The notes under the pieces are model-generated. The model worked only from the letters and a program-made list of their open reading frames with translations. It was not told where the DNA came from and did not search any database. The position numbers were made by a program, and so were the translations under genes. 64,000 nucleotides of DNA from Sphingomonas yabuuchiae. Its GTDB lineage: Bacteria > Pseudomonadota > Alphaproteobacteria > Sphingomonadales > Sphingomonadaceae. The stretch covers positions 62,001 through 126,000 of the forward strand of contig NZ_LDTF01000007.1 of assembly GCF_001477495.1 (NCBI RefSeq), read 5' to 3'. How positions within the stretch are numbered: position 1 is the first letter of the stretch; each line of letters opens with the position of its first letter. Of the stretch, positions 24,979 to 63,816 are shown in pieces.

Positions 24979-25055
24979 GCGCCCGTAGCTCAGCTGGATA
25001 GAGCATCAGACTACGAATCTGAGGGTCGGACGTTCGAATCGTTCCGGGCGCGCCA
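24979..25055 (+). tRNA. tRNA-Arg (ACG), copy 2; carries the left island boundary
   Basis: Identical in sequence to copy 1, with a 29-base spacer between them. The 3' part of this copy, from the anticodon loop to two bases past CCA, is the left copy of the 48-bp repeat that recurs at 63769-63816, so the island integrated here and the tRNA was kept intact at the left end. Confidence 0.97.
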
Positions 25056-28786: not shown

Positions 28787-29659
28787 TCACACCAACGGCC
28801 CGTTCGGCGGCCGGCCTGGCGCAGTCAATGCGGCGAAGAGCCAATCAACCACGTCGTCGGCGAGCAAGCCGGAAAGCATTATCGACATCCAGCTGTTCTT
28901 GCTGCCCGTCGACTCATCGACATCCTGGCGCTCCTCTTCGAGGAGATCGACGAGACCTGCTCGCGTGGCTGGGTTCTTTTTTAGGGGACGGATCAAGAGG
29001 CCGGGTTTCAAGACCATCTTGGCCCATTCACCACGAATCCACTCCGCAGCACCCGACCTCCTGACCACGTTCGTAAGGTGGAAGTCCACCGCGTTTCGGA
29101 AGGGATGGGCTGCATCCAGGACCGAACGAAGGCCGACTTTCGGCACTGGACCGAGATCGCGAAAATGTGCGGTCAGGAGGCGCTCGCTCAGAATGTCGTC
29201 GTAGTAGGGATGAAGGAGCCTCGCGCCCGGAAATGCAGGATTGGTCAGTCGATTGGTGCGCAACAGGTTGCACTTGCAGGCCGGTACGAGATTCATACCG
29301 AAGATTGAGAAGCAGGGATAGCCAGCCTTCGGCATCACGTGATCAAGTGTGCCACAACGCGACGAGCCGCACATCGGACAAGTCTTGTGCTCACCATCGG
29401 CACGAATTTTGTCAATGAAAGCGATGTCTGCGCTGGGATTCGTGTAGTGGCCCTTCAGCAGCGTGGCGAGTTGTGGCGAAATCGGCACGTTTTCAATTTG
29501 CGAAACGTCGCCGTTCACCGATGCGTATTGCTTGTAGCCCGCCCGAACAGCCGCGAGGTTGTCGCGGAGCAGTGGATAGCTTCCGACCATCTCATTCTTG
29601 GAGAGAGCTACCACTGCCGCGTCGTCGTTGAAGAAGACCGGTCGCTGAAGACGGTTCAA
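28787..29659 (-). CDS. HNH endonuclease, PtuB-like (Septu-type defence)
   Basis: A 290-residue protein with an HNH nuclease core: C94PMC97, TLDH107VMPK, N123LVPAC128KCN131. Paired cysteines should bind a structural zinc, H107 is the general base. It follows an ATPase gene with a TTGA overlap: TTG start at 29657-29659 inside the ATPase stop. An ATPase plus HNH pair in this order is the layout of Septu (PtuA/PtuB), in which the complex degrades DNA during phage infection. Assignment to Septu is by architecture; sequence distance to known PtuB is not measured. Confidence 0.78.
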   Translation of the reverse strand: MNRLQRPVFFNDDAAVVALSKNEMVGSYPLLRDNLAAVRAGYKQYASVNGDVSQIENVPISPQLATLLKGHYTNPSADIAFIDKIRADGEHKTCPMCGSSRCGTLDHVMPKAGYPCFSIFGMNLVPACKCNLLRTNRLTNPAFPGARLLHPYYDDILSERLLTAHFRDLGPVPKVGLRSVLDAAHPFRNAVDFHLTNVVRRSGAAEWIRGEWAKMVLKPGLLIRPLKKNPATRAGLVDLLEEERQDVDESTGSKNSWMSIMLSGLLADDVVDWLFAALTAPGRPPNGPLV

Positions 29660-31302
29660 TTCTCGCCCTCCACCTTCGCCCGGATCTCACCCAGGAGTTC
29701 CAGCGAAAGCTCGTCCTTGTACTCGTCGAAGATCTTGCGCCAGGGCAGCTTCTTCCCTGCTATCGTGTCCTCCACCTGCTTGGCCAGACGCGAGGGCTCC
29801 TCCTCACCGAACACAAAATAGGAGATCGTTCCTACGTCCGCCCCGAATGTGCGCAAGCGCGGTGTCACAGCCCTTACCCAGCGGTCCTTGTCCGATCGCA
29901 GCACGCGCACCTGATCCTCGAATGCCTCGCGAACGAAGTAGGCCGAATGCGTGGCGATGATTGCTGCCGACCCGGTCTGCTTCAGCAGACTGTCGAGCAG
30001 AGCGACGAATTGGCTGATAAAGTTTGGGTGCAAATGCGTCTCTGGCTCATCGAACAAGAGAAGCGAGCTGTTCTCGATGTAGAGGCTAGCCAGGGCGGCG
30101 AAGCGCACAAACGAGAGCTCGCCGCTGCTGAGAGGGTAGGCGCGATTTCCCACGAGACGCTTGGGCTCCTGGCCCTCTTCAATGGATCCGAATACATCGA
30201 TCCGCTCGTCCTCATCGCGGATGCTGACCAGCCGCGAGATGTGGATTCCATTGCGCCCCGCGCGATCGAACCCGAGTACCAACTGGTCGTAGGCATCGAT
30301 CGCTCGGAGTGCGCTGAGGAAAATTTCAATCCGCGGGACGCCTGCTATCCGCTCGTCAGTCCGCATCAACTGGATGATCAGATCAGTCGCAGTCTGTCGC
30401 GATCGACCGGCGCCAGCGTGGGTCAGAGACAGCCGGCGATACCAAACACGCTCACCGCGGCGACGCACTGGAAACACGGATGAGCCAGGTAGGGTCGGGT
30501 AGAATGCCAGCAACCGGTTCAGTTGGGGCCTTCCACCGTCCCCATCGGTCAACTCGCCGTTAACACGTAGGGCTGCCCGGGCGATCCTGCCGAGAACCTG
30601 GCTCTTGCCAACGCCGTTCTTTCCTATGACGACCGCGAAGCGCTTCGGCAGCACCGGTTCATCCTGCTCGAATCGGAAGCGCAGATCGTGAGGATTTGGT
30701 CGGCCTTCCAGCTGAAAGCGGATGTGTAATTCCTCCGAAAGAGCGCCGATTTCCTCGAACTCTTCACCATCGAGAATGGTGTCGGCGTTCTTCCAGGCGA
30801 AGTAGGTCTCGGATTGGCGCATGAACGCGCGGGTGAACACCTTTGTCTCTTTGGCCTCGCGAGTCCAACCGGCAGATGCGCCTGCGCCGGCTGCCACCAT
30901 GTCTTTCATGGCGGCGAGTACGAGCGAACCCTCCTGCGGCCCAAGCGTCCTGATGATGTTCCGATAGGCCTGCATGTCGGGAAGCATCGTGAAGTAGTCG
31001 GGGATGTCCTCAGCCGGGATCATGTCCGACCTGGCGCCGTCCATCGCGTCAAGTAGCTCTCGCAGATCGCCGTTCTTTCGCGACTTGCCGTGGAAGCCAA
31101 GGAACGCCTGCATCCGAAAATTGGGATGTGGGTCGAAGGTAAATTGCGGGGTTATCACAACTTCGACAAGGATCCGGAAACCAGCATTCGTCTCTCGAAT
31201 ATCGCTCGGTGAGATCACGATTGTCGCGGGTTCGGGAAAGGTAATTTCGTCGATGTCGCGAGTGAATATCACCCGATAACGCTCGGTAGGCTCCACAGGC
31301 AT
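29656..31302 (-). CDS. SMC/ABC-type AAA ATPase, PtuA-like (Septu-type defence)
   Basis: A 548-residue ATPase. The Walker A is G227KNGVGKS234, the ABC signature-like SSGE is at 392-395, Walker B LLLFDEPETHLHP has D418/E419, and the H-loop is ATHS at 450-453. The first 220 residues are unlike the ATPase core and may sense a trigger or contact the nuclease; a long insertion lies between Walker A and the signature. It is coupled by a four-base overlap to the HNH gene, so both are made together. Start ATG 31302 has only a weak ribosome site. An inverted repeat lies just upstream (31317-31336). Confidence 0.8.
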   Translation of the reverse strand: MPVEPTERYRVIFTRDIDEITFPEPATIVISPSDIRETNAGFRILVEVVITPQFTFDPHPNFRMQAFLGFHGKSRKNGDLRELLDAMDGARSDMIPAEDIPDYFTMLPDMQAYRNIIRTLGPQEGSLVLAAMKDMVAAGAGASAGWTREAKETKVFTRAFMRQSETYFAWKNADTILDGEEFEEIGALSEELHIRFQLEGRPNPHDLRFRFEQDEPVLPKRFAVVIGKNGVGKSQVLGRIARAALRVNGELTDGDGGRPQLNRLLAFYPTLPGSSVFPVRRRGERVWYRRLSLTHAGAGRSRQTATDLIIQLMRTDERIAGVPRIEIFLSALRAIDAYDQLVLGFDRAGRNGIHISRLVSIRDEDERIDVFGSIEEGQEPKRLVGNRAYPLSSGELSFVRFAALASLYIENSSLLLFDEPETHLHPNFISQFVALLDSLLKQTGSAAIIATHSAYFVREAFEDQVRVLRSDKDRWVRAVTPRLRTFGADVGTISYFVFGEEEPSRLAKQVEDTIAGKKLPWRKIFDEYKDELSLELLGEIRAKVEGEN

Positions 31303-31779: not shown

Positions 31780-34700
31780 GTGGTCCGCCGCATTCTTTAT
31801 GAGTTTGGAGACGAAGACGCCCACCATATATTAGCGGCGATGACAGGGGAACTCATTGATCTGAGTCGACGCTTCCGGCCCGCCGCTGAGGACGACGACC
31901 GCCGCTTCCATGGCCTGCTTGGGCACGACAAACTTAGTTCCACGTGGCCAGATTTGCTCGCAAAGCGTCGGGTGGTCATTCTGGCAGAAGCCGGCAGCGG
32001 CAAGTCCACTGAGTTCGAGCGGCAGCAAGCCGCGGTCGCGAGCGAGGGGTTATTTTCATTTTTCGTGACCGTGCGCGACGTTGCCGACGCGGGGTTGGAA
32101 GGCGCGATGCCGCCAGAGATGCGACGAGCATTTGGCGAGTGGAGAGCGTCGTCCGACGCAGAATGTTGGCTCTTCGTGGATTCAGTCGACGAAGCCAAGG
32201 ACCAGGGTCATCACTTCGATGGCGTTGCACGTCGCTTGGCAGATGCGATCGCCGGTTTGGAAGGGCGAGTCCATCTCTACATTTCGGGGAGGTTCACAGA
32301 TTGGGACAAGACGGCGGATCAGCGTTCAATGGACAAGTGGCTGCGCCTCCCGAAGCTGCCGCCCCCACCGACTGATCTCGGGGACGAAGTTAGGGCGACC
32401 CTAGACCGAAAAGAGCGAAAGCCACGGGGCGAGGTTGAGCCGATCGAAATACTGCGGATGGACCCGCTCGCAGCATGGCAGGTTCGAAAATTTGCGGAAG
32501 GTGTCGGCATCGCCGACGTTGATGAACTGCTCAAGGCGATCGAGCACGGGAACCTATGGTCGTTTGCCGCACGCCCTCTCGACCTGGGCTGGATGGTGGA
32601 TTTCTGGCGAGCGCACAAGCGGCTCGGGACACTGCGCGCGATGATTGAAGAGAGCATCAAGGCGCGCCTCCTCGATCCTGATCCGATGCGCCGCCGCAAC
32701 GATCCAATCGGCGGCGAAGCGGGCCGGCGCGCGCTCGATCGAATCGGCGCCGGTTTCCTGTTCTGCGGGAAGGATACGTTGCGCATCCCTACGGCGGGGC
32801 TGGACCCCGCACCCGCAGAAACGTCCATCCCCCTCGAAGACCTTCTTCCTGATTGGAGCGACGAGCACCGGCTACATCTGCTGCGGCGCCCGGTTTTCGA
32901 TCCCGCCACGCTGGGCCGGGCTCGTCTGCACAATGACAATGAGCAAACGCTGCGCGCCTATCTCACTGCGACTTGGCTGCAACGGCGCATTGATGAAGGC
33001 TGCCCCCTCTCGACCGTATTCGACCTGCTGTTCGTCGATCTATATGGCTATCGGCTCGTGCGCCCGGACATGGTCGAGGCGTCCGCCTGGCTATCCGGAA
33101 CGTCGCCGGCGGTCGCGGAGGCTCTGATCGCTCGTTCGCCGTTCAACCTCTTGAAGCATGGCGATCCTGGCTCCTTGCCAATCCCAACGCGGGTGAAGGC
33201 CCTCGATGCGGCATTGGGCCAGCTCGCCACGATCGATCGCCAAAAGCTGTGGTTTATCGAGGACAGTCTTCGCCGCTTTGCGGACCCCGCGCTTGATCCT
33301 CATTTTGCGGACTGGTGGCTAGCGGCGGGATCAGACGAGGAAGCACGTCACATCGTCCTGCGGTTGATCCATGCCGGGCGGCAGGCCGGCGGGCTCGAAA
33401 CCGTCCGCGCCGTCGCCTTCGACCAATCCGCTGACGAGATTTCGCAGCTTCTCGCGGGCCGCGGGCTCATGGCGATCGGCGACGACGAAGATCGTCGTCG
33501 CTATGCGCGCTATGTCGTCAGCGAGCATACTTCGCTCCGGCGATCGATCGTTCTGGAGACACTGTCGAAGCTCTTCCCGACCTTCATCTCGGTTAACGAG
33601 TTTTTCGCATTAATCGATGCGATTGGGGTCTCCGATGACGATGGCCACAAATCGATCTTGCCCCTTGGTCCCGAACTGCCGACCAACTTGGTGTCGCCGG
33701 CGGACCTCCAAGCCTTCCTCGACCAGATCGTTGCGCGCTCCGGCGAATTTACGGGTGAAGGGGAAGAGCATCGGTTCCGAGAGGCGTTTGCCGAACTTGC
33801 CAGCGCCGCGGCGAACCGGCTGCTCGACAGCCACCCCGACTTCGTTCCCGACGTGGTGACCGACCTGGTCCTGCTCCTTCGGGAAACCGAACGCTATTCG
33901 GGCAACAACGACGCCTTTCAGGCCCTCGGCAAGCTGTTCGGCACATCGAGGGGGCGCCGACAATCGTCCTTCTGGCGGGCAGTCGATCGTATCCGCAGTC
34001 ATCCTTACATCACCAGCCCCGACGACGTGAACCTGTTCATGGTGCAGCATCTCGGTTGGCCGGTGGTGCTCACCGCTGATGATCTCGCTTGGCTCGTTCC
34101 CGATATTCAAAAGCGGACCGATCCGCGGGATCGACAGACCGCGCTGCGGACCGCGCACGTCCTGTGGCGGGATTTCGGTCAAGATCCCGCGATCCTCGCG
34201 TCGATGTTTGCAGCGGCCGAGAGCGACGCCCGCCTATCGGAGCAACTCACCGCTTGGCAATCTCCGCCGCCCGAAACACCAGAAATGGCCGGACACATGG
34301 CGCGAATGGAGGAGCTTCGGAAGCGGAACGAGGAACGCACCACCCAACGGGATACGAGTTGGATCGAGCTAATCGATACGCTGCGTGCCGATCCGACCTT
34401 CTTTGACCGCCTCTCGCCGCAGACAGCCGATTCAGTCGATTCACGCCTCTTCCATCTTTGGCAGTTTCTGTCGTGGCGGACACAGTCGCGCAGCGTCTAC
34501 TCGATCGAGAGCCTCGACGTGGTGGCCCCCATCTTCGGGCCGGAGTTGACGCGGCGTTTCGGCGACGCGTTGATCGCCTTTGCCTATGCTCACACACCGC
34601 AAGGGGCAACCGAACAAGAAGGCGGCGCTCGATCCGTCACGAATTTCGACACAATGGCCCTGGGCGGCATGGCGCTCGCCGCCAGCACCATTCCCAATTG

Positions 34701-36231
34701 GGCGAAGACAATCAGTCCGGAGCGCGCCGACCAAGCCGCCCATCTGGCGATGATCGAACTGAACGGTCTGCCCGCGTATTTGCTACCGCTGGCGACGGCC
34801 CATCCGGATCGTGTGCGATCGGTGCTGCGGACGGCGATCGAACGCCAGCTCGACCGTGCCGATCCGCAAGGCCACGGAATGCTCGATCGGCTCGAATATG
34901 CCGATCCCGCCTTTGCTCGTTTGATGGCTCCTGATCTCCTAAGCTATCTGGAGACGCATCCCTCGATATCGGCCGTGATGCTCGAAAAGGCCGTGTCGGT
35001 GATCATTCGTGCCTTGCCGGATGTGCCAGACGGCGTGGCTGCCTTTGTCGCCGAGCGCATCGACAATGCCGCCGACCCTGTCATCGCTGCCTACTACCTT
35101 TTCCTGCTATTCGGCATTCTTGGCGATCCTGCGGTCGATGCGCTTGAACGGAAGATGCTGCCGCTCGGCCCCAACGACCAAGCCACCCTTTGCTGCACGT
35201 TGCTGCCGCGATTGTTTGGCGGCCGCTTCCACCGATCGATCGAGGTGCCCGTGGCGCTTTCGGTACAGCGGCTTGAACAGCTTCTGGTCCTCGCGTTTGA
35301 AGGCGTCCGGCCCGACCAGGATATCAATCGACCGAGCGGGGAGGTCTACTCGCCTGAATTGCGTGACGAGGCGCAGGATGCCCGCAGCGCGATCTTCAAT
35401 CGGCTGTTGCAGACGCCCGGCGAAGCCACCCACGCCGCGCTCCTGCGGTTGGCGAATATCCCCGGCTTCCCTATCGAGCCAGAATGGCTGCACATTCATG
35501 CGTATCGGCGGGCGGAGGGCGACGCCTACCTGCCAGCGTGGATGGCAAGTGATCTGCTGGTGTTCGAGCGAAAGTTTGACCGTCCGCCGACAACGACCGC
35601 CGACCTCCAATTTATCGCTCAACGCCGCCTCGAAGGTATCCAGCACGATCTGATCAACCATAAGTTCGCGCAGGGCGACACAGTGCAGGGCTTAGTCGAC
35701 GAGAATGCGGTCCAGCGCTGGGTAGCCAGCACTTTGGAGGCCCGTCAGGAAGAGGCCTACACCGTCCATCGAGAAACCCATTATGTCGAAGAGAAGGAAC
35801 CCGACATTGTGCTCGCCAGCCGCCATAGCGGGGTCGAGCTGCCGATCGAGATCAAGGTTGCCGACGGACTCTCGGTCGCACAGATGGAGGCGGCTTTGGC
35901 CACGCAATTGTGCGGTCAATACCTTCGCCATGATACCACGCGGCACGGCATTCTCTTGCTCGTCTACCAGAACGCACGGCGCGACGGCTGGGAATTGACA
36001 CCAGGCGCGCCGAAGGTTCCCTTCGACAACGTCCTAGCCCACCTGAACGAGAAGGCCCGGCTGAACCGCGAAGCGTCGGCCCTGGGCCCGCAGCCGATTG
36101 TTGCCACCATCGATGTTTCGAAAGTGGTGCCGATCAAGGTGCAGCGCGATCAGGCGCGGGTGAAGGCTGCCGCTAGGCGAAAGGCCTCCGAACCGAAAGC
36201 CGGCATCAACGAAGAAGCGCAGCGGCAGTAA
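31780..36231 (+). CDS. NACHT-like P-loop NTPase with C-terminal PD-(D/E)XK-like domain
   Basis: A 1,483-residue protein. Near the N-terminus is a P-loop NTPase of NACHT/STAND type: Walker A ILAEAGSGKST (K75) and Walker B WLFVDSVDEAK (D134, D137, E138), followed by a winged-helix-like region to about 330. Residues 400-1,300 are helical repeats without a clear family. The C-terminal part has EKEPD1342IVL, LPIE1357IK1359V and QLCGQYL, the spacing of a PD-(D/E)XK nuclease core. Such architecture suggests an Avs-like phage sensor, but with the nuclease at the C-terminus rather than the N-terminus. Start is GTG 31780; no strong ribosome site. Function is inference. Confidence 0.72.
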   Translation: MVRRILYEFGDEDAHHILAAMTGELIDLSRRFRPAAEDDDRRFHGLLGHDKLSSTWPDLLAKRRVVILAEAGSGKSTEFERQQAAVASEGLFSFFVTVRDVADAGLEGAMPPEMRRAFGEWRASSDAECWLFVDSVDEAKDQGHHFDGVARRLADAIAGLEGRVHLYISGRFTDWDKTADQRSMDKWLRLPKLPPPPTDLGDEVRATLDRKERKPRGEVEPIEILRMDPLAAWQVRKFAEGVGIADVDELLKAIEHGNLWSFAARPLDLGWMVDFWRAHKRLGTLRAMIEESIKARLLDPDPMRRRNDPIGGEAGRRALDRIGAGFLFCGKDTLRIPTAGLDPAPAETSIPLEDLLPDWSDEHRLHLLRRPVFDPATLGRARLHNDNEQTLRAYLTATWLQRRIDEGCPLSTVFDLLFVDLYGYRLVRPDMVEASAWLSGTSPAVAEALIARSPFNLLKHGDPGSLPIPTRVKALDAALGQLATIDRQKLWFIEDSLRRFADPALDPHFADWWLAAGSDEEARHIVLRLIHAGRQAGGLETVRAVAFDQSADEISQLLAGRGLMAIGDDEDRRRYARYVVSEHTSLRRSIVLETLSKLFPTFISVNEFFALIDAIGVSDDDGHKSILPLGPELPTNLVSPADLQAFLDQIVARSGEFTGEGEEHRFREAFAELASAAANRLLDSHPDFVPDVVTDLVLLLRETERYSGNNDAFQALGKLFGTSRGRRQSSFWRAVDRIRSHPYITSPDDVNLFMVQHLGWPVVLTADDLAWLVPDIQKRTDPRDRQTALRTAHVLWRDFGQDPAILASMFAAAESDARLSEQLTAWQSPPPETPEMAGHMARMEELRKRNEERTTQRDTSWIELIDTLRADPTFFDRLSPQTADSVDSRLFHLWQFLSWRTQSRSVYSIESLDVVAPIFGPELTRRFGDALIAFAYAHTPQGATEQEGGARSVTNFDTMALGGMALAASTIPNWAKTISPERADQAAHLAMIELNGLPAYLLPLATAHPDRVRSVLRTAIERQLDRADPQGHGMLDRLEYADPAFARLMAPDLLSYLETHPSISAVMLEKAVSVIIRALPDVPDGVAAFVAERIDNAADPVIAAYYLFLLFGILGDPAVDALERKMLPLGPNDQATLCCTLLPRLFGGRFHRSIEVPVALSVQRLEQLLVLAFEGVRPDQDINRPSGEVYSPELRDEAQDARSAIFNRLLQTPGEATHAALLRLANIPGFPIEPEWLHIHAYRRAEGDAYLPAWMASDLLVFERKFDRPPTTTADLQFIAQRRLEGIQHDLINHKFAQGDTVQGLVDENAVQRWVASTLEARQEEAYTVHRETHYVEEKEPDIVLASRHSGVELPIEIKVADGLSVAQMEAALATQLCGQYLRHDTTRHGILLLVYQNARRDGWELTPGAPKVPFDNVLAHLNEKARLNREASALGPQPIVATIDVSKVVPIKVQRDQARVKAAARRKASEPKAGINEEAQRQ

Positions 36232-36350
36232 ATAGGGCTGCACCCGATTGGCGTCCGCGCGGCCACAACTGCCGAGCGGGGTCGCAACTTTTCGCAGTCG
36301 GCGGCCGCTCGCGGGCTGGCATCCGCTTGTGTGCATGATATGTTCCAGAA

Positions 36351-38105
36351 ATGAACGACGCCCATTTGCCCAACCGGGATGCGATACTGACGAAGTGGGG
36401 CGACGGCACGCTGGTCGACGCCCTGTTTGCCGAATACGGCCGCATTTGGCTGGACGAGGAGAGCCCTACGATCGGCCTGCTCGCTGACCTCCACAATGCA
36501 GGCGAGATCGATCTCCTGAGCATCATCACGACGGAGGCCGTCGAGCGGCACACAGGGCCGAACTTCTTCGACGGGCAGCATCTCTATGAGCGGCTCATCC
36601 CGAGGATTACCGGCTCGGTCCGGGAGATGGTCCGGGTCGTCGAGACGTTACGCATCGGCGGCGGCAACGACATGGCGGCTGGCCTACACATCGACAAGTT
36701 TGCGAAGTGGTGCGGTGACGATCCATCGCGTCCGGCCGAACTCCTCGCCCTGATCGACGAGGGTTTTGCGGAGGCCAATGGATACCTCATCATTGCCATC
36801 AAGAACGGCGTAGCCGTCGACCGAACGCTGTTCGTCGACCGGGCATACGGCTTCCTAGAAAGCGGGACGGAGCGGCAGCGGTGGGACGCGCTGAGCGCGC
36901 TTGGCCAGATCGGGATGTCAGACGAGGCCGACTGGGGTCGCCTCCTCGAAGCATTGGAAACGGCGCTGGCGGCGAACCCCGACGACACATTTCGCGCCTA
37001 CTTCGTTTCGTCGATCGGAGAGCGACTGAAGGACGCACCGGCGGAGCGGATCGACGCGCTCGAGACGCTGGCCGGTCTGGCGCTGTCGAAGGGTGGGGAA
37101 CATACGCTCCATTCCGCGTCTCGATTGCTGGCCCTGTATCCAGAGCCGCTGAGCGCCGCGCTGAAGGCAAGGATGCTGGAGAAGCTGCGCGAGGTCGACG
37201 CCGAGAACAAGGGGGCCATCGACTTACTCGACATCGCGCTGTCAAAAATGGTGACGGCGGGGCAGGTTGTGGATGTCAGGCAGCTTGCCGAGGCACTTAT
37301 CAGGCGGGACGAGGGAGCGGTTAAGCTGGGCCGCCTCGACTCCACGGTGCGCGCGGTGGTTGAGAATCCGAACGACGCGCTACCCGACTGGGTAGTCGCC
37401 TGGCTGCGCGACGGCGACCACCGGCTCTGCGCCGCTATGGACCGAGCGATGTTCGGCGCCGGCCGGGATGAGCGGCCGCTGCGCGTCGACTTCTCCCGAT
37501 ATGGACTTCGCGAAGCGGAGTATCCCTACTTGGCGCGCAAGGTCGTCAGCAGCTTCTTCCTGAAGCCCGTGCTCATGTCGTCGCTGCTTTCCTCGCTCCT
37601 CCGGACGGCCCCCGCGGAAGTGTCGACGGAGGTAGAGCAGGTACTCGTCGATCCGGTCCTGCAGAACTATGCGGGATCGACCCGTGACCTGCTGATACCA
37701 ATCTCCGAAGACGCGACTGATCCGGCGGCGCCTGCGATAGCGCGCGCGATCGCAGCACAGGACAGCTACCTGGAGAGGCTGAGGGCGCCGGGCTTCGTTC
37801 CCGAACTTTGCCCGTCGGAGAGGGAACGTCAGCTGGAGTGGGAGCGTCACACGGACAGCATGTCGGAGGCTATGCGCAACGCGAGGAGAAAATCCATCTT
37901 CGCTCAGATCGCGACAGAGTCCGTCATCCTCTACGGCAAGCGCGCCGTGAGTTGGGTCCAGCACGCTGGAGACGAACCCCGCCGTATGGAGACCGAGATG
38001 GGAAGCATCAGCACCTCGTTCGAGGTGCCTCGCGTGGATATTGTGGATCCGGTCGGGCTGCAGCTGATGTTGCTATCATTCAGAGCGGAGGCTCGCCCGG
38101 AATGA
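36351..38105 (+). CDS. Unknown helical-repeat protein, first of a coupled pair
   Basis: A 584-residue protein that I do not recognise. It is mostly alpha-helical, with HEAT-like units (RWDALSALGQIGMSDEADWGRLLEALETAL, then RIDALETLAGLALSKGG, HSASRLLALYPEPLSAAL). No Walker, nuclease or membrane motifs are seen. It starts 119 bases after the NTPase gene on the same strand. Its stop overlaps the ATG of the next gene (ATGA at 38102-38105), so the two products are probably made in equal amounts and may form a complex. Confidence 0.6.
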   Translation: MNDAHLPNRDAILTKWGDGTLVDALFAEYGRIWLDEESPTIGLLADLHNAGEIDLLSIITTEAVERHTGPNFFDGQHLYERLIPRITGSVREMVRVVETLRIGGGNDMAAGLHIDKFAKWCGDDPSRPAELLALIDEGFAEANGYLIIAIKNGVAVDRTLFVDRAYGFLESGTERQRWDALSALGQIGMSDEADWGRLLEALETALAANPDDTFRAYFVSSIGERLKDAPAERIDALETLAGLALSKGGEHTLHSASRLLALYPEPLSAALKARMLEKLREVDAENKGAIDLLDIALSKMVTAGQVVDVRQLAEALIRRDEGAVKLGRLDSTVRAVVENPNDALPDWVVAWLRDGDHRLCAAMDRAMFGAGRDERPLRVDFSRYGLREAEYPYLARKVVSSFFLKPVLMSSLLSSLLRTAPAEVSTEVEQVLVDPVLQNYAGSTRDLLIPISEDATDPAAPAIARAIAAQDSYLERLRAPGFVPELCPSERERQLEWERHTDSMSEAMRNARRKSIFAQIATESVILYGKRAVSWVQHAGDEPRRMETEMGSISTSFEVPRVDIVDPVGLQLMLLSFRAEARPE

Positions 38106-39826
38106 AGCTCGTCTTCAGACAGTATCTCGCATCCCTCAAGGAGCGCAGAGAGCTCGACGCGGTGCTGCCGGACCTGCTGAGCGAGCTCGGCTACACCGTG
38201 ATCTCTAGGCCGTCAGTGGGTACCCGCCAATACGGCGTAGACGTCGCGGCGGTGGGCCGGGACGCGGACGGCTGCCGGAAGCTGTTCCTGTTTTCGATTA
38301 AGCAGGGTGATCTGACCCGCGCAGACTGGGACGGCAGTCCTCAGGCGCTGCGCGGCTCGATCAACGACATACTCGATGTCTACATCCCGACGCGCGTTCC
38401 CGAGGCCTATTCGAAGCTCGAGATCGTCATCTGCCTGTGCTTTGGTGGCGATATCCAGGAAGCAGTCCGAGACAACGTCACGCAGTTTACGAGGCAGCAG
38501 ACGAAGAACGGCATCTCGTTCGCCGAATGGAACGGCGACTATATGGCGGGGCTGCTGGTCAACGGCGTCCTTCGGGAGCAGTTGGTCGACAAGTCCCTTC
38601 GCGCCAGCTTCCAGAAGGCGGTCGCGATGGTCGACGAGCCGCAGATCGCGTTCGAGCACTTCGAGCGGCTTGTGCGCGGGCTCTGCAAGGTAGAGGACTC
38701 CACCCCCCGGCAGCGGGCCACGATCCTGCGCCAGATCTACATCTGTCTCTGGGTCCAGTTCGTCTGGGCACGGGATGCCGGGAACGTGGAGGGACCGTAT
38801 CGAGCCAGTGAACTCGCGATCCTGCTTGCGTGGCACCTGATCCGGGCAGATGTGCCGAAGAGCACGAAGGCGTCCGAGGAGGTCGGGTCAGCATTCGCCG
38901 AACTCCTAAACCTGCACTTCCTAATCTGGGACGAGCTTGCCAGCGGGAAGATTCTCCCCTTCGTCGATCACGAACACGCGATCTCGGTCGCCGTAGGATC
39001 GGCCTCGCCGGTCGACGTGAACTTGAAGCTCTTCACGCTGATCGGGCGCATGGCGATGCGGGGGCTGTGGCACCTGTGGTTCGCGGGAGGCGGCGACCGG
39101 CTGCCAATGGCGCGAGACGACTGGGACTGCCCGGAAGCGTCGGAATTGGCGCAGCAGATCGTCCAGCTCATCCGCAACAACCCGATCCTCCTGACACCTT
39201 TCACGGACGAGCAGTCTGTCGAGATCGGGAGCGCCCTGATTTTCCTAACGATGATGGGAGGGTGGAACCAAGCGGCCGGCAACTACGCCGATGCGGTCAT
39301 CGAGCGCACGGTCTACGCCTTCCGGTCCCACAGCAGATACCCGACGATCTACGCCGACTATCGGTCGCTGCTCGTCCATCCGCGCGAGCGCACGTCCGAA
39401 TACCGTGAGGGTCAAACGAAGGGCAGCTCGCTCTTTCCTCTGCTCTCCCTCTGGGCGTCGACCTTCGGCGAGGGCATGGGCGCCCGCTTCCTCTCGGAGT
39501 TCGCAGAGAAGGAACTGGGCCACTGCAACATGCAGTTCTGGCTAGCGGGCGCCGACAGTGAGAACCTCCTATACTTGGGCGATCGGTCGCACGGGGCGTC
39601 GCTCGGCGGAATACCGATCACGACGGACGGCGAACGCGCGATGCGCATGCTAGAGGCGGAGTGCGCGTCAACGACGGGGTTCGAAAATCTGTCCGCTATC
39701 TCGCTAGGCCACTGGCCGGTGCTTGCGATGGCATGCAGGCATGCCGGGCTGCCGCTTCCGCCAGATCTGTGGCTGGGCCTGCTGCGGGAGGCGCGATCGA
39801 CGAAGGCTGCTGACGGCGAAGATTGA
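38102..39826 (+). CDS. Unknown protein with Mrr-like nuclease N-terminus, second of a coupled pair
   Basis: A 574-residue protein. Residues 15-70 read LLSELGYTVISRPSVGTRQYGVD47VAAVGRD, then KLFLFS65IK67QGD. This resembles the restriction-endonuclease (Mrr) core, in which a buried aspartate is followed by a strand ending in (D/E/Q/S)xK. The acidic residue before xK is a serine here, so activity is uncertain. The rest (about 200-574) is helical and not recognised. The start is fixed by the four-base overlap with the preceding gene. Likely partner of that protein. Confidence 0.58.
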   Translation: MKLVFRQYLASLKERRELDAVLPDLLSELGYTVISRPSVGTRQYGVDVAAVGRDADGCRKLFLFSIKQGDLTRADWDGSPQALRGSINDILDVYIPTRVPEAYSKLEIVICLCFGGDIQEAVRDNVTQFTRQQTKNGISFAEWNGDYMAGLLVNGVLREQLVDKSLRASFQKAVAMVDEPQIAFEHFERLVRGLCKVEDSTPRQRATILRQIYICLWVQFVWARDAGNVEGPYRASELAILLAWHLIRADVPKSTKASEEVGSAFAELLNLHFLIWDELASGKILPFVDHEHAISVAVGSASPVDVNLKLFTLIGRMAMRGLWHLWFAGGGDRLPMARDDWDCPEASELAQQIVQLIRNNPILLTPFTDEQSVEIGSALIFLTMMGGWNQAAGNYADAVIERTVYAFRSHSRYPTIYADYRSLLVHPRERTSEYREGQTKGSSLFPLLSLWASTFGEGMGARFLSEFAEKELGHCNMQFWLAGADSENLLYLGDRSHGASLGGIPITTDGERAMRMLEAECASTTGFENLSAISLGHWPVLAMACRHAGLPLPPDLWLGLLREARSTKAADGED

Positions 39827-40071
39827 CGGTGACTTACCTTCTGCAATCAGGATCGCTGTCATGGGCCGTCTACGGTCGGAATGGCGCAATGTTGCCGGAC
39901 GGCTTCGCGCTGAGAACGGCTGGTTTTTGGCGGAAGCTGATCTTCAACGCGACACCAGCTAACGGCGTATTTTGGTCGCTTGCGGACGCTTCGAGATGTC
40001 GTCACCGTGGTGTTCTTCGGTCGCCTGCTGTACTTACGGATGCGTCGATCAACGACCGGAGGATAGCCGAA

Positions 40072-57788: not shown

Positions 57789-58760
57789 TCAGGCGTGGAG
57801 CAGCAGCCACTCCTCGTTGAAGTCCTTGCCTGCGCGGGGGAACAGCACCCTCACGGCGATCCCCAGCGCCTCGTACGCTTCCCTGGCGCGCTGGACGGCC
57901 GTTCGTCCGGCATCGTCCGCGTCGCCGCACAGCGTGACGCTTCGGACGTGACGGGGCAGCGCCACATGCGCGAGGTTGCCGTCGCCGAGCGCCGCCCACA
58001 CGGTCGCACCGACGAACATCCGGGTCAGCGCAAGCCCGTCCTCGACGCCTTGGGTGAGCATGATCTCCGGTCTGGCGGGACCCAGGCGCAGCGCTCCGCC
58101 GCGGATTTGACCGAGGCTGAGGCGGGCCGATCCACGGCGCGCCTTGCGTCCTTCCTTGTCGAGGAAGGTACGCTGGATTCCGACGACGCTGCCGTCGACG
58201 TCCTGCACGGCCGCGATCATCGCAGGCTCCCTCGGCCCCTCCGAGCCGTCATCGTGCCAGAAGCGCGGCACCCAGGAGTGGCGGATGCATCCGGGCACCT
58301 GACCGTCCAGGCCGCGGTTGGCGAGATATGCCTCCACCACGGTGCCCTCGATGGCGACACCGCGACGAAATTCCACCTTCGCCCGATGGACGTTGACCTG
58401 TCGGATGGCAGTCGCCTGCGCCACGGGGTAGCGCTGCTCGGGCGGGCAGAAGCTGGACGACCCCATCAGCCACTCGCATGATTCGAGGAAACTGCGGCCG
58501 CCCACCTCCTGGACGAAGGCGATGACGTCGCCTCCGCGACCGCAGCCGTGGCAGTAGAACGTGCCCTTGGCTTCGTTGGCGAAGAAGGAGGGTGTGTGTT
58601 CCTCGTGCAGGGGACAGAGCCCCTTCATCTCGGTGCCGGACCGCACCAGCTTGGTGATGAGGCTCGCGACCTTGGTGATCGACACGTCCCGCTTCAGCCG
58701 GGCGACGTCGATCTGCCCGGTCTCGGTCTTGTAGCAGGAGGGTATGCTGCTCTTTGGCAT
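57789..58760 (-). CDS. CHC2 zinc-finger / Toprim primase-like protein
   Basis: A 323-residue DnaG-like protein. The CHC2 zinc ribbon is C49PLH52...FYC70HGC73GRGGDVIAFVQ. After a linker, a Toprim domain is seen: IMLTQGVEDGLALTRM (catalytic glutamate) and SVTLCGDADDAGRTAVQRA (DxD). It would make RNA primers for island or satellite replication. Such short primases are typical of phage satellites, P4-like elements and mobilizable islands. AAGGGAG upstream of ATG 58760. Confidence 0.85.
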   Translation of the reverse strand: MPKSSIPSCYKTETGQIDVARLKRDVSITKVASLITKLVRSGTEMKGLCPLHEEHTPSFFANEAKGTFYCHGCGRGGDVIAFVQEVGGRSFLESCEWLMGSSSFCPPEQRYPVAQATAIRQVNVHRAKVEFRRGVAIEGTVVEAYLANRGLDGQVPGCIRHSWVPRFWHDDGSEGPREPAMIAAVQDVDGSVVGIQRTFLDKEGRKARRGSARLSLGQIRGGALRLGPARPEIMLTQGVEDGLALTRMFVGATVWAALGDGNLAHVALPRHVRSVTLCGDADDAGRTAVQRAREAYEALGIAVRVLFPRAGKDFNEEWLLLHA

Positions 58761-62029: not shown

Positions 62030-63427
62030 CTACTTACTGTTGTCCTTGGCGTCTTTGGCTGCCCGGCGCGCAGCTGCCCGTTTCTGATCCTCGCGCATCG
62101 GCCACCCCTTGCGTAGAGCCTTCACCCGCCGCGCCCGATCCGCCGCCGCCTCGATGTACATGCGGTCCCGGCCGCCTGGCCATGCGGAATCTGCGGACAT
62201 CAGTTCGTCGATCCAGTTGTTCCATCGCTGGAGGACCTCGCCGGCTTCGATCTCGAGAGCTGCGCGCTGATAGGTCCGGGTGACCAATTTGCCGTTGCTG
62301 TGTAGGAGGATGGCGTCGATGAGCGACGCGGTCGTCAGAAACGGCTTCTCCTGCAGCTTGGAGGCACCTGTCGTACGCAGGTCGTGGATGGTGTAGTGTG
62401 CGAAGGAGTGCGCCGTGCCGTCCCGCTCGTTCGCGGCTTCCAGGCGCTGGTGGATGTGTGCATCCAGCAGGTTCTTGACCTGACTGCCCATCTCGGGGGC
62501 GGTCTTGCCGCCATCGAGCGTGAAGACGGGCCCGACGCGGAGCTTGGGGTCGGGTTGCTGGCGCAGGATGATGGCCATGACCTGCGTCGGGAGCTCGATG
62601 AGGTGGGATACACGGCCTTTCGTCCTCGACGCCCTGAGCGACCACTCTCGCTTGGGGATGTTCAGCTCGCTCCATTCCATCCGGCTGATCTCCTCCTTGC
62701 GCTTGAGAGTTCTGACCAGGACCTCGTATATGTCTCCGCGACAGTCACCCAGATCGGCGGCGGCCTCCAGCAGGCGCTGCAGTTCGTCGTCACGCAGGCG
62801 CCGATCCCGTTCACCTGCCTTGTTGATGGTGACTTTGGTTGCCACGTTATTGGAAATAACGTCGCGCCGTACCGCGTCGTTCAGGATAGTGTTGAGGTAC
62901 ACCAGCCCCATTCGCCTTGCGGAAAGTCCGCGTTCCGCCAGCTTTTCCGCGAAGTCCTCCACGTCGGTGACCGTGAGCCGGTCCATTCTCGTCTCGCCCA
63001 GCAGACCGACGACGTCCCGCATCACGATGGCCCGCTGTCCCTTGTTCAGCGGATTGCCCTGCTTGTCGCGACGTTCCAGGTATTTGACCGCATAGTGGCC
63101 GAGGTTGAGTTCTTCCGCGGCGGCGGCTGCTTTCAGCTTCGCCTTTCGCTCGGCGATGGGGTCGACCCCGCGACGACGCGCGAAAGCCATATCGGCCGCC
63201 ATACTGCGGGCTTGGTCGAGAGTGAGTTCGCCCAAGCGTCCCAACATCAGACTCTGGGTTTTACCTCCCGGCATCGCGTACTGGTAGACGAACGAGATCG
63301 TCCCTGCGCAGGTACGGTATGCGCCGAAGCCCTTGATCTCGAGATCCCAGAGGATCACCTTGGTTTTCGAGGGCGGGGAGGGCGGAAGCGCCCTGAGTGA
63401 GTTGAGCGTGATCTTCGTTCCGTGCAT
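62030..63427 (-). CDS. Tyrosine-type integrase of the island
   Basis: A 465-residue site-specific recombinase. N-terminal DUF4102-like arm-binding domain (KVILWDLEIKGFGAYRT, FVYQYAMPGGKTQSLMLGRLGELTLDQARSMA), core-binding domain, and catalytic domain with the arginine in RTLKRKEEISRMEWSEL, lysine in RTKGRVSH, HDLR in YTIHDLRTTGAS, histidine in LLHSNG and nucleophile tyrosine in VTRTYQRA. It integrates the island into the 3' end of tRNA-Arg. AAGGGA upstream of ATG 63427. It lies 342 bases from attR, as expected. Confidence 0.93.
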   Translation of the reverse strand: MHGTKITLNSLRALPPSPPSKTKVILWDLEIKGFGAYRTCAGTISFVYQYAMPGGKTQSLMLGRLGELTLDQARSMAADMAFARRRGVDPIAERKAKLKAAAAAEELNLGHYAVKYLERRDKQGNPLNKGQRAIVMRDVVGLLGETRMDRLTVTDVEDFAEKLAERGLSARRMGLVYLNTILNDAVRRDVISNNVATKVTINKAGERDRRLRDDELQRLLEAAADLGDCRGDIYEVLVRTLKRKEEISRMEWSELNIPKREWSLRASRTKGRVSHLIELPTQVMAIILRQQPDPKLRVGPVFTLDGGKTAPEMGSQVKNLLDAHIHQRLEAANERDGTAHSFAHYTIHDLRTTGASKLQEKPFLTTASLIDAILLHSNGKLVTRTYQRAALEIEAGEVLQRWNNWIDELMSADSAWPGGRDRMYIEAAADRARRVKALRKGWPMREDQKRAAARRAAKDAKDNSK

Positions 63428-63768: not shown

Positions 63769-63816
63769 ACTACGAATCTGAGGGTCGGACGTTCGAATCG
63801 TTCCGGGCGCGCCATT
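63769..63816 (+). repeat. attR: right 48-bp direct repeat of the island
   Basis: Perfect copy of 25010-25057 (ACTACGAATCTGAGGGTCGG through CCATT). It is the 3' half of tRNA-Arg without a 5' half, so it is not a functional tRNA. The sequence diverges on both sides, defining the exact limits of the core site. The unit from one repeat to the other is 38,759 bp. Confidence 0.93.

What the first reader, a model, noticed from the sequence alone, without database searches (positions are those of the whole stretch)
31780..36231. Giant NACHT-like NTPase with nuclease-like domain at the C-terminus
P-loop and NACHT-type Walker B near the N-terminus, about 900 residues of helical repeat, then a D...ExK core (D1342, E1357, K1359) with a downstream glutamine. 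Known Avs-type antiviral NTPases carry their effector before the NTPase; here the order is reversed, which may mean a separate class of sensor. It lies in a block with other defence-like genes.
Basis: partly seen in the sequence, partly recalled or inferred. Interest (0 to 1): 0.75.

Follow-up and report, generated by a model that had tools for sequence, protein, structure and literature searches.

The report
NLR-like phage sensor with tail nuclease
The gene encodes a bacterial relative of animal NLR immune receptors that probably detects phage and fires a DNA-cutting domain at its tail end, the reverse of the usual order; its family already has a name, but the tail domain looks swappable between relatives.

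Summary
The ORF encodes 1483 aa (more likely 1463, start 31840) with an intact NACHT P-loop, Walker B and sensor arginine. A model of residues 21-690 resembles NLR proteins most (NLRC4, Z 11.9). The C-terminus has an E-E-D-ExK-Q-Y core. It is not a new class: NCBIfam holds it as antiphage_HyoA, matched over 1429 of 1430 positions (1060.8 bits, below the 1200-bit cut-off), so I call it HyoA-like. EruA, a second NCBIfam family, has the same layout.

New here: of 55 family loci examined, 51 keep the core and four lack the whole domain, all ending at profile position 1243-1248. There the nuclease gives way to a membrane helix, a short motif shared with the next gene, or (twice) an overlapping upstream Fic gene. 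The middle repeats diverge fastest. This fits a receptor ordered switch, sensor, effector with an exchangeable effector.

The restriction-endonuclease fold was not confirmed: the model was poor (pLDDT 50) and profile tests were inconclusive. The gene lies with PDC-M01 and Olokun genes in a 38.8-kb tRNA-Arg island.

The parts
31840..36231 (+). HyoA-like gene (1463 aa from ATG 31840; the frame opens with GTG 31780, 1483 aa)
   Evidence: NF058534 match over 1429/1430 positions, 1060.8 bits; close relatives align from residue 20-21
31993..32007 (+). Walker A GSGKS, residues 72-76 (K75)
   Evidence: G74 and K75 invariant in 26 of 26
32170..32193 (+). NACHT-type Walker B LFVDSVDE, residues 131-138
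   Evidence: D134, D137 and E138 invariant in 26 of 26
32290..32292 (+). sensor arginine R171
   Evidence: invariant in 26 of 26
33340..35559 (+). repeat region, residues 521-1260; 521-900 diverges fastest and is the likely sensor
   Evidence: identities by segment; helical up to residue 690 in the model
35569..36099 (+). C-terminal nuclease-like module, about residues 1264-1440
   Evidence: boundary from four relatives whose homology stops at profile position 1243-1248
35701..35922 (+). catalytic-type core E1308, E1332, D1342, E1357, K1359, Q1376, Y1381
29656..31302 (-). neighbour: PDC-M01A-like AAA ATPase, divergent
   Evidence: PDLC04242, E 3.4e-55
28787..29659 (-). neighbour: PDC-M01B-like
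   Evidence: PDLC04264, E 1.7e-26
36351..38105 (+). neighbour: Olokun OloA
   Evidence: PDLC03925, E 4.8e-117
38102..39826 (+). neighbour: Olokun OloB (ORF opens at 37808; the family match starts at residue 99)
   Evidence: PDLC03926, E 2.3e-207
24979..25055 (+). tRNA-Arg whose last 46 nt are repeated at the far end of the island
63769..63814 (+). 46-nt direct repeat of the tRNA-Arg 3' end (attachment-site-like)
62030..63427 (-). phage-type integrase next to the far repeat
   Evidence: PF00589 E 4.2e-9, PF13356 E 5.5e-10

Best explanation
A single-gene, NLR-like antiphage protein of the HyoA/EruA type, with its parts in the order switch, sensor, effector. At rest the NACHT module (residues about 60-500) holds the protein in a closed, nucleotide-bound state. 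A phage component, unknown, binds the helical repeats (about 521-1260, above all 521-900). Nucleotide exchange then lets the protein oligomerise, which brings the C-terminal metal-dependent nuclease domains (about 1264-1440) together. They cut DNA of phage, host or both and stop the infection, probably at the cost of the cell. Shown here: the parts, their order, near-absolute conservation of both active sites, an NLR-like model of the N-terminal half, the recurring module boundary, the defence-island setting. Inferred: trigger binding, oligomerisation, nuclease activity, DNA as substrate, cell death.
For:: full-length match to NCBIfam antiphage_HyoA; both active sites invariant down to 20% identity; of 55 family loci picked by hand (fragments and duplicates left out), 51 carry the core and four lack the whole domain in every frame of the stretch fetched; none shows a degraded core; the four stop at profile positions 1245, 1247, 1243 and 1248; what stands there instead (membrane helix; shared motif; coupled Fic gene); in the VIA second look 33 of the first 36 rows are named NLRs (NLRC4 Z 11.9, rmsd 9.3, 373 residues; NLRP3, NOD2); EfAvs5 Z 8.4; segment 521-900 has the lowest identity in 8 of 8 relatives compared (8 picked of 27). 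PDC-M01 and Olokun neighbours; the same stretch through Olokun is in L022, and pieces like PDC-M01A and OloB lie near the gene in L023 and L026.
Against: The endonuclease fold was not confirmed: model pLDDT 50; best PDB sequence match E 0.23, none a nuclease; in Pfam only DpnII-MboI in 1 of 32 members at E 0.032, while unrelated families score better in single members (Tcp11, E 0.0042); profile comparison E 0.015 with SduA_C (4 sequences) and 0.19 with Mrr_cat, the latter not better than control windows. The score is below NCBI's cut-off for HyoA. No experiment was found in the papers searched. The N-terminal structure match is not significant by Foldseek in the PDB (none below E 0.001), and helical models can reach Z 13 in VIA without true relatives (note).
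Confidence: 0.75

Rival explanations
1. The C-terminal domain is a nuclease-fold sensor or DNA-binding part rather than the effector: it recognises phage DNA ends or replication structures and the NACHT module signals onward to something else.
For: The fold is not confirmed, and many related folds bind DNA structures (established knowledge).
Against: Every domain examined keeps all metal-binding-type and lysine residues, or the whole domain is gone. Where it is gone, a membrane helix, a shared motif or a Fic gene appears, which are effector-type replacements. No partner gene recurs widely that could be the onward effector.
Confidence: 0.12
2. The domain cuts RNA (tRNA or mRNA) instead of DNA, so the cell is stopped by loss of translation.
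For: Substrate was not tested; nothing in the sequence fixes it.
Against: The acidic-ExK-Q pattern is typical of DNases (established knowledge). bNACHT25, a NACHT protein with an N-terminal PD-(D/E)XK domain, causes DNA degradation (PMC12169576, passages).
Confidence: 0.08
3. A STAND-type regulator or other housekeeping protein, not defence.
For: Some STAND proteins are transcription regulators (recalled).
Against: Patchy spread: 17 of 398 phylum genomes, 10 of 196 genomes of its own order; found on plasmids, viral contigs and this island; NCBIfam names the family antiphage.
Confidence: 0.05

Closest known systems
NCBIfam NF058534 antiphage_HyoA
   Same: Aligned over 1429 of 1430 positions with the same domain order and active sites. 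In the unrooted tree the window protein and four sphingomonad relatives group with L030 and L038; L038 is over the cut-off (1203.5 bits).
   Different: 1060.8 bits against a cut-off of 1200. No paper describing HyoA was found, so what was tested on it is unknown to me.
NCBIfam NF058535 antiphage_EruA
   Same: NACHT at the N-terminal side, long repeat, and the same C-terminal E-D-ExK-Q core.
   Different: A separate family: the window protein scores 161 bits against a cut-off of 1000.
bNACHT25 / bNACHT32 (clade 6 bacterial NACHT proteins)
   Same: NACHT switch plus a PD-(D/E)XK DNase needed for defence (PMC12169576, passages).
   Different: There the nuclease is N-terminal and the sensor C-terminal; here the nuclease is last.
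Avs (AVAST) antiviral STAND NTPases
   Same: STAND NTPase and, in some, a nuclease-type effector (recalled); Avs3 and EfAvs5 appear among the structure matches.
   Different: Effector before the NTPase; here fewer than 50 residues precede the P-loop strand. No PADLOC model matches the window protein; among 26 family members the only PADLOC match is Cas11e in one, E 0.0034.
Animal NLRs (NLRC4, NLRP3, NOD2)
   Same: Best VIA structure matches, mostly over model residues about 5-490.
   Different: Effector-recruiting domain is N-terminal and the sensor is leucine-rich repeats (established knowledge).
vWA-MoxR ternary conflict systems
   Same: C-terminal, exchangeable effectors, REase among them, are described there (PMC8195603 and PMC7159879, passages), so a tail effector as such is not new.
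   Different: There the effector hangs on the vWA component; the passages seen do not describe a NACHT protein with a C-terminal REase.

Membership tests
HyoA (NF058534) | full-length alignment to the profile | tested here: met
   positions 1-1429 of 1430
HyoA (NF058534) | score over the equivalog cut-off (1200 bits) | tested here: not met
   1060.8-1060.9 bits; hence called HyoA-like, not HyoA
HyoA (NF058534) | phage defence activity | not testable with these tools
   needs phage challenge
EruA (NF058535) | score over the cut-off (1000 bits) | tested here: not met
   161.1 bits
NACHT/STAND NTPases | GxGK[ST], hhhDSxDE-type Walker B and sensor arginine | tested here: met
   the key residues invariant in 26 of 26
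NACHT/STAND NTPases | NBD-HD1-WHD-HD2 fold like NLRs | tested here: met
   pLDDT 71; 33 of the first 36 VIA rows are named NLRs, Z 9.1-11.9. Caveat: Foldseek alone gives none below E 0.001 in the PDB
NACHT/STAND NTPases | Pfam NACHT match | tested here: inconclusive
   none for the window protein; PF05729 in 2 of 26 members, best E 0.0034; nSTAND3 in 2, best E 0.00022
PD-(D/E)XK superfamily | acidic, D, ExK, Q core | tested here: met
PD-(D/E)XK superfamily | restriction-endonuclease fold | tested here: inconclusive
Avs | effector N-terminal to the NTPase | tested here: not met
   and the model: P-loop at residues 72-76, no domain before it; the nuclease-like core is C-terminal

The most novel reading that the evidence does not exclude
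HyoA/EruA-type proteins are NLR-like receptors of reversed polarity (switch, sensor, effector), with a fixed sensor body and a tail socket at about HyoA profile position 1246 into which different outputs are plugged: a nuclease in cis, a membrane helix, a homotypic signalling motif shared with a downstream partner gene, or a translationally coupled Fic enzyme in trans. This would break the rule, stated in print for bacterial NACHT proteins, that the effector sits at the N-terminus, and would show that a NACHT oligomer can fire from its other face.
Probability: 0.45. Interest if true: 0.75.

Novelty: new member of a known kind. Interest (0 to 1): 0.5.

Why it matters
PMC12169576 (passages) states that bacterial NACHT proteins, like all STAND NTPases, carry the effector at the N-terminus and the sensor at the C-terminus; PMC13092281 (passages) says NACHT domains in defence typically lead to activation of an N-terminal effector. 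HyoA/EruA-type proteins do not fit. If their tail is the effector, the geometry of activation must differ from inflammasomes and Avs, and natural tail swaps give ready-made tools to test sensor and effector separately.

Tried and rejected
Reading the gene as a novel class: dropped after the NCBIfam match. Upstream 149-aa ORF as partner: no significant relative in the loci then held. A common partner gene: among 35 family loci (the window itself not included) only four neighbour groups within 1.5 kb recur, each in two or three loci. Burkholderia glumae plasmid gene as a tail swap (L029): rejected; the frame stops before an ISNCY element and the nuclease core lies beyond it, at L029:11443-12015.

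Two loci first scored as lacking the core (L128, L147) had been fetched short or carry an in-frame stop. Longer stretches (L180, L181) show the core: the default search still missed it; the residues were read by eye and the domain was found at maximum sensitivity (E 4.4e-8 and 3.5e-12). The same sensitive search finds no nuclease in any frame of L028, L053, L151 or L152.

Fic as a general partner: rejected. The Fic family is common on its own (255 plasmid records; 31 of 299 genomes at E 1e-60). Its 57%-identical relatives in one Bradyrhizobium and one Methylobacterium plasmid have no HyoA beside them. In eight Rhizobium plasmids the DNA match ends just inside the HyoA start; of two looked at, one keeps 32 HyoA residues and the other none. 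So the Fic pair rests on two Rhizobium plasmids 94% alike and one genome of the window's own family (G1134), where the HyoA frame is interrupted. Another Fic gene lies 108 bp upstream of a nuclease-bearing member (L076), so a Fic neighbour does not exclude the nuclease.

C-terminal fold: the model from 6 sequences failed (pLDDT 50) and I ran no fold search on it. Profile comparison with SduA_C and Mrr_cat aligns D and ExK in register (ExK against QxK in Mrr), but scores are weak; the HyoA-only windows over the same domain score lower against SduA_C (E 0.098) than the full set (E 0.015); and the positive control, Mrr_cat against SduA_C, fails too (E 0.55), so the test has no power. The viral structure library gave one match below E 0.001 for the N-terminal half, a phage protein named as NLR family. 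Five further viral scans gave no new contig (searches returned known ones; none).

Literature: HyoA occurs in one unrelated paper (listing); EruA in none of 17 listed; searches list no paper on either. The library lacks most subscription papers, so this does not show that none exists.
Full report
Observation. The frame 31780-36231 (+) is open and encodes 1483 residues. Close relatives align only from residue 20 or 21, so translation probably starts at ATG 31840. Pfam, PADLOC and PHROGs give no family for the protein.

Identity. NCBIfam NF058534, 'NACHT domain-containing antiphage protein HyoA', matches residues 28-1448 over 1429 of 1430 profile positions with 1060.8 bits; the curated cut-off is 1200. 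The sister family EruA matches at 161 bits. By that cut-off the protein is HyoA-like rather than certified HyoA. In an unrooted tree of 28 sequences, the window's included, it groups with four sphingomonad proteins (61% identity) and with L030 and L038; L038 is over the cut-off (1203.5 bits). I found no paper on HyoA or EruA.

Spread. The protein finds relatives at E 0.001 in 17 of 398 genomes of the phylum. The HyoA profile finds 14 of 385 genomes of the class, 8 over cut-off, 18 of 350 of another class, 4 over cut-off, and 10 of 196 of its own order, 3 over cut-off; these counts include partial matches to EruA-type proteins. It matches 60 of 72,556 plasmid records, 2 of 50,697 phage records and two IMG/VR contigs. 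This is the patchy, mobile spread usual for defence genes.

N-terminal half. The key residues of Walker A, Walker B and the sensor arginine are invariant in 26 of 26 full-length sequences. A model of residues 21-690 from 7 sequences has mean pLDDT 71. Foldseek's first PDB rows are Avs3 (E 1.2e-3) and NLRC4 (E 1.4e-3), none below 0.001. In the VIA second look 33 of the first 36 rows are named NLRs, led by NLRC4 at Z 11.9, rmsd 9.3, 373 residues aligned; the other three are chains of mouse oocyte cytoplasmic lattices; EfAvs5 is at Z 8.4. Helical models can reach high Z by chance, but here the rows agree on one family, mostly over model residues about 5-490. No other domain precedes the NACHT fold.

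C-terminal module. In 32 C-terminal domains, HyoA-type and EruA-type together, 8 of 175 columns are invariant and seven of them make up E1308, E1332, D1342, E1357, K1359, Q1376, Y1381. Read by eye, the pattern of helix, three strands (the second opening with D1342, the third carrying E1357 and K1359), helix with Q1376 and Y1381, strand is the core of PD-(D/E)XK enzymes; this is inference. I could not confirm the fold: model pLDDT 50 from 6 sequences; best PDB sequence match E 0.23 and none a nuclease; one Pfam DpnII-MboI hit at E 0.032 in 1 of 32 members, with unrelated families scoring better in single members. Profile comparison puts D and ExK in register with SduA_C (E 0.015, better than every control window from the rest of the protein, but only 4 SduA sequences) and D with Mrr_cat (E 0.19, not better than controls), while the positive control between those two families fails (E 0.55).

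All or none. I examined 55 family loci for the core, picked by hand; short fragments and duplicates were left out, and most of the 60 plasmid records were not fetched. In 49 the residues E, E, D, E, K, Q are all present, 47 with the tyrosine. Two more (L128, L147) first scored as lacking it; longer stretches showed the core, so 51 of 55 carry it, a few of them in split or interrupted genes (L029, L147, L148). Four lack the whole domain in any frame of the stretch fetched. None had a degraded core. The loci are not independent: some are near-identical, 32 of the domains built the profile, and the searches started from nuclease-bearing members, so other tail types may be undersampled.

What replaces it. 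The four end at nearly the same place: profile position 1245 (L028, Rhizobium sp. TAL182 plasmid), 1247 (L053, IMG/VR contig), 1243 (L151, G772) and 1248 (L152, G1134). L053 ends in one strongly hydrophobic helix (mean hydropathy 2.84 over 19 residues, against 1.85 for the highest stretch of the window protein). L151 ends in a short motif that recurs at the start of the next gene, 15 bp downstream and 112 aa long: 11 of 20 residues identical, and 0 of 2000 shuffles of the tail reach the score. This resembles the matching motifs of neighbouring NLR and effector genes in bacterial amyloid signalling (PMC8086366, passages); I did not test for amyloid. L028 and L152 are each preceded by a Fic gene whose stop overlaps the start in ATGA; the Fic proteins are 79% identical, the HyoA parts 50-58%. 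The Fic domain passes Pfam's cut-off (54.9 against 24 bits). The L152 HyoA frame is interrupted and the Fic family is common without HyoA, so this pairing is the weakest of the three.

Sensor. Segment identities to eight relatives, picked of 27, show residues 521-900 as the lowest in all eight (for example 53.9% against 65.1% for NACHT and 68.9% for the nuclease in L023). That is what a part under an arms race would show, and places the sensor in the middle.

Setting. The island begins at a tRNA-Arg pair; the last 46 nt of the tRNA recur at 63769-63814, with an integrase at 62030-63427, 38.8 kb in all. GC falls from about 0.68 to 0.59 at the tRNA and rises again further in. Inside are PDC-M01A/B, the HyoA-like gene, and OloA/OloB of Olokun. 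L022, labelled Bacillus sp. 2B10 N13, carries the stretch 33319-39978, from inside the HyoA-like gene through Olokun, at 95.5% identity; the label may be wrong, since four of the five other close relatives are sphingomonads (the fifth, L025, 64%, is from a betaproteobacterial MAG). L023 and L026 carry pieces like PDC-M01A and OloB within 5 kb of their HyoA-like genes. Among 35 family loci no neighbour gene recurs in more than three, so the nuclease form is probably a one-gene system.

Mechanism. The best reading is a receptor that fires from its tail: repeats bind a phage component, NACHT exchanges nucleotide and oligomerises, the nuclease domains pair and cut DNA. Only the parts, order and conservation are shown. 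Print states the opposite order for bacterial NACHT proteins (PMC12169576, passages; PMC13092281, passages). C-terminal effectors are described for other conflict systems (PMC8195603, PMC7159879, passages). The gene itself is a new member of an already named family; the tail-socket reading is the part that may be new.

Noticed in passing
window 24979-63814: A 38.8-kb island bounded by tRNA-Arg and an exact 46-nt repeat of its 3' end, with an integrase at the far end and lower GC in its left part.
   Followed up: partly
L151:9221-9559: A 112-aa protein right after a nuclease-less HyoA-like gene begins with the same motif with which that gene ends; it may be a trans-acting effector or adaptor.
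   Followed up: partly
L028:4817-9717; L152:5379-10359: Fic gene overlapping the start of a nuclease-less HyoA-like gene by ATGA in a Rhizobium plasmid and in a genome of the window's own family; the second HyoA frame is interrupted.
   Followed up: partly
L053:5001-8927: Nuclease-less HyoA-like gene with a terminal membrane helix in an IMG/VR contig, next to a phage portal gene.
   Followed up: partly
L063, L065-L070: EruA-type proteins share the C-terminal nuclease-like core with HyoA although the two families are far apart.
   Followed up: partly
L022: A record labelled Bacillus carries part of the HyoA-like gene and Olokun at 95.5% identity; the label may be wrong.
   Followed up: no
window 57789-58760: Primase-like gene (CHC2 zinc finger and Toprim) inside the island, perhaps part of the island's own replication.
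   Followed up: no
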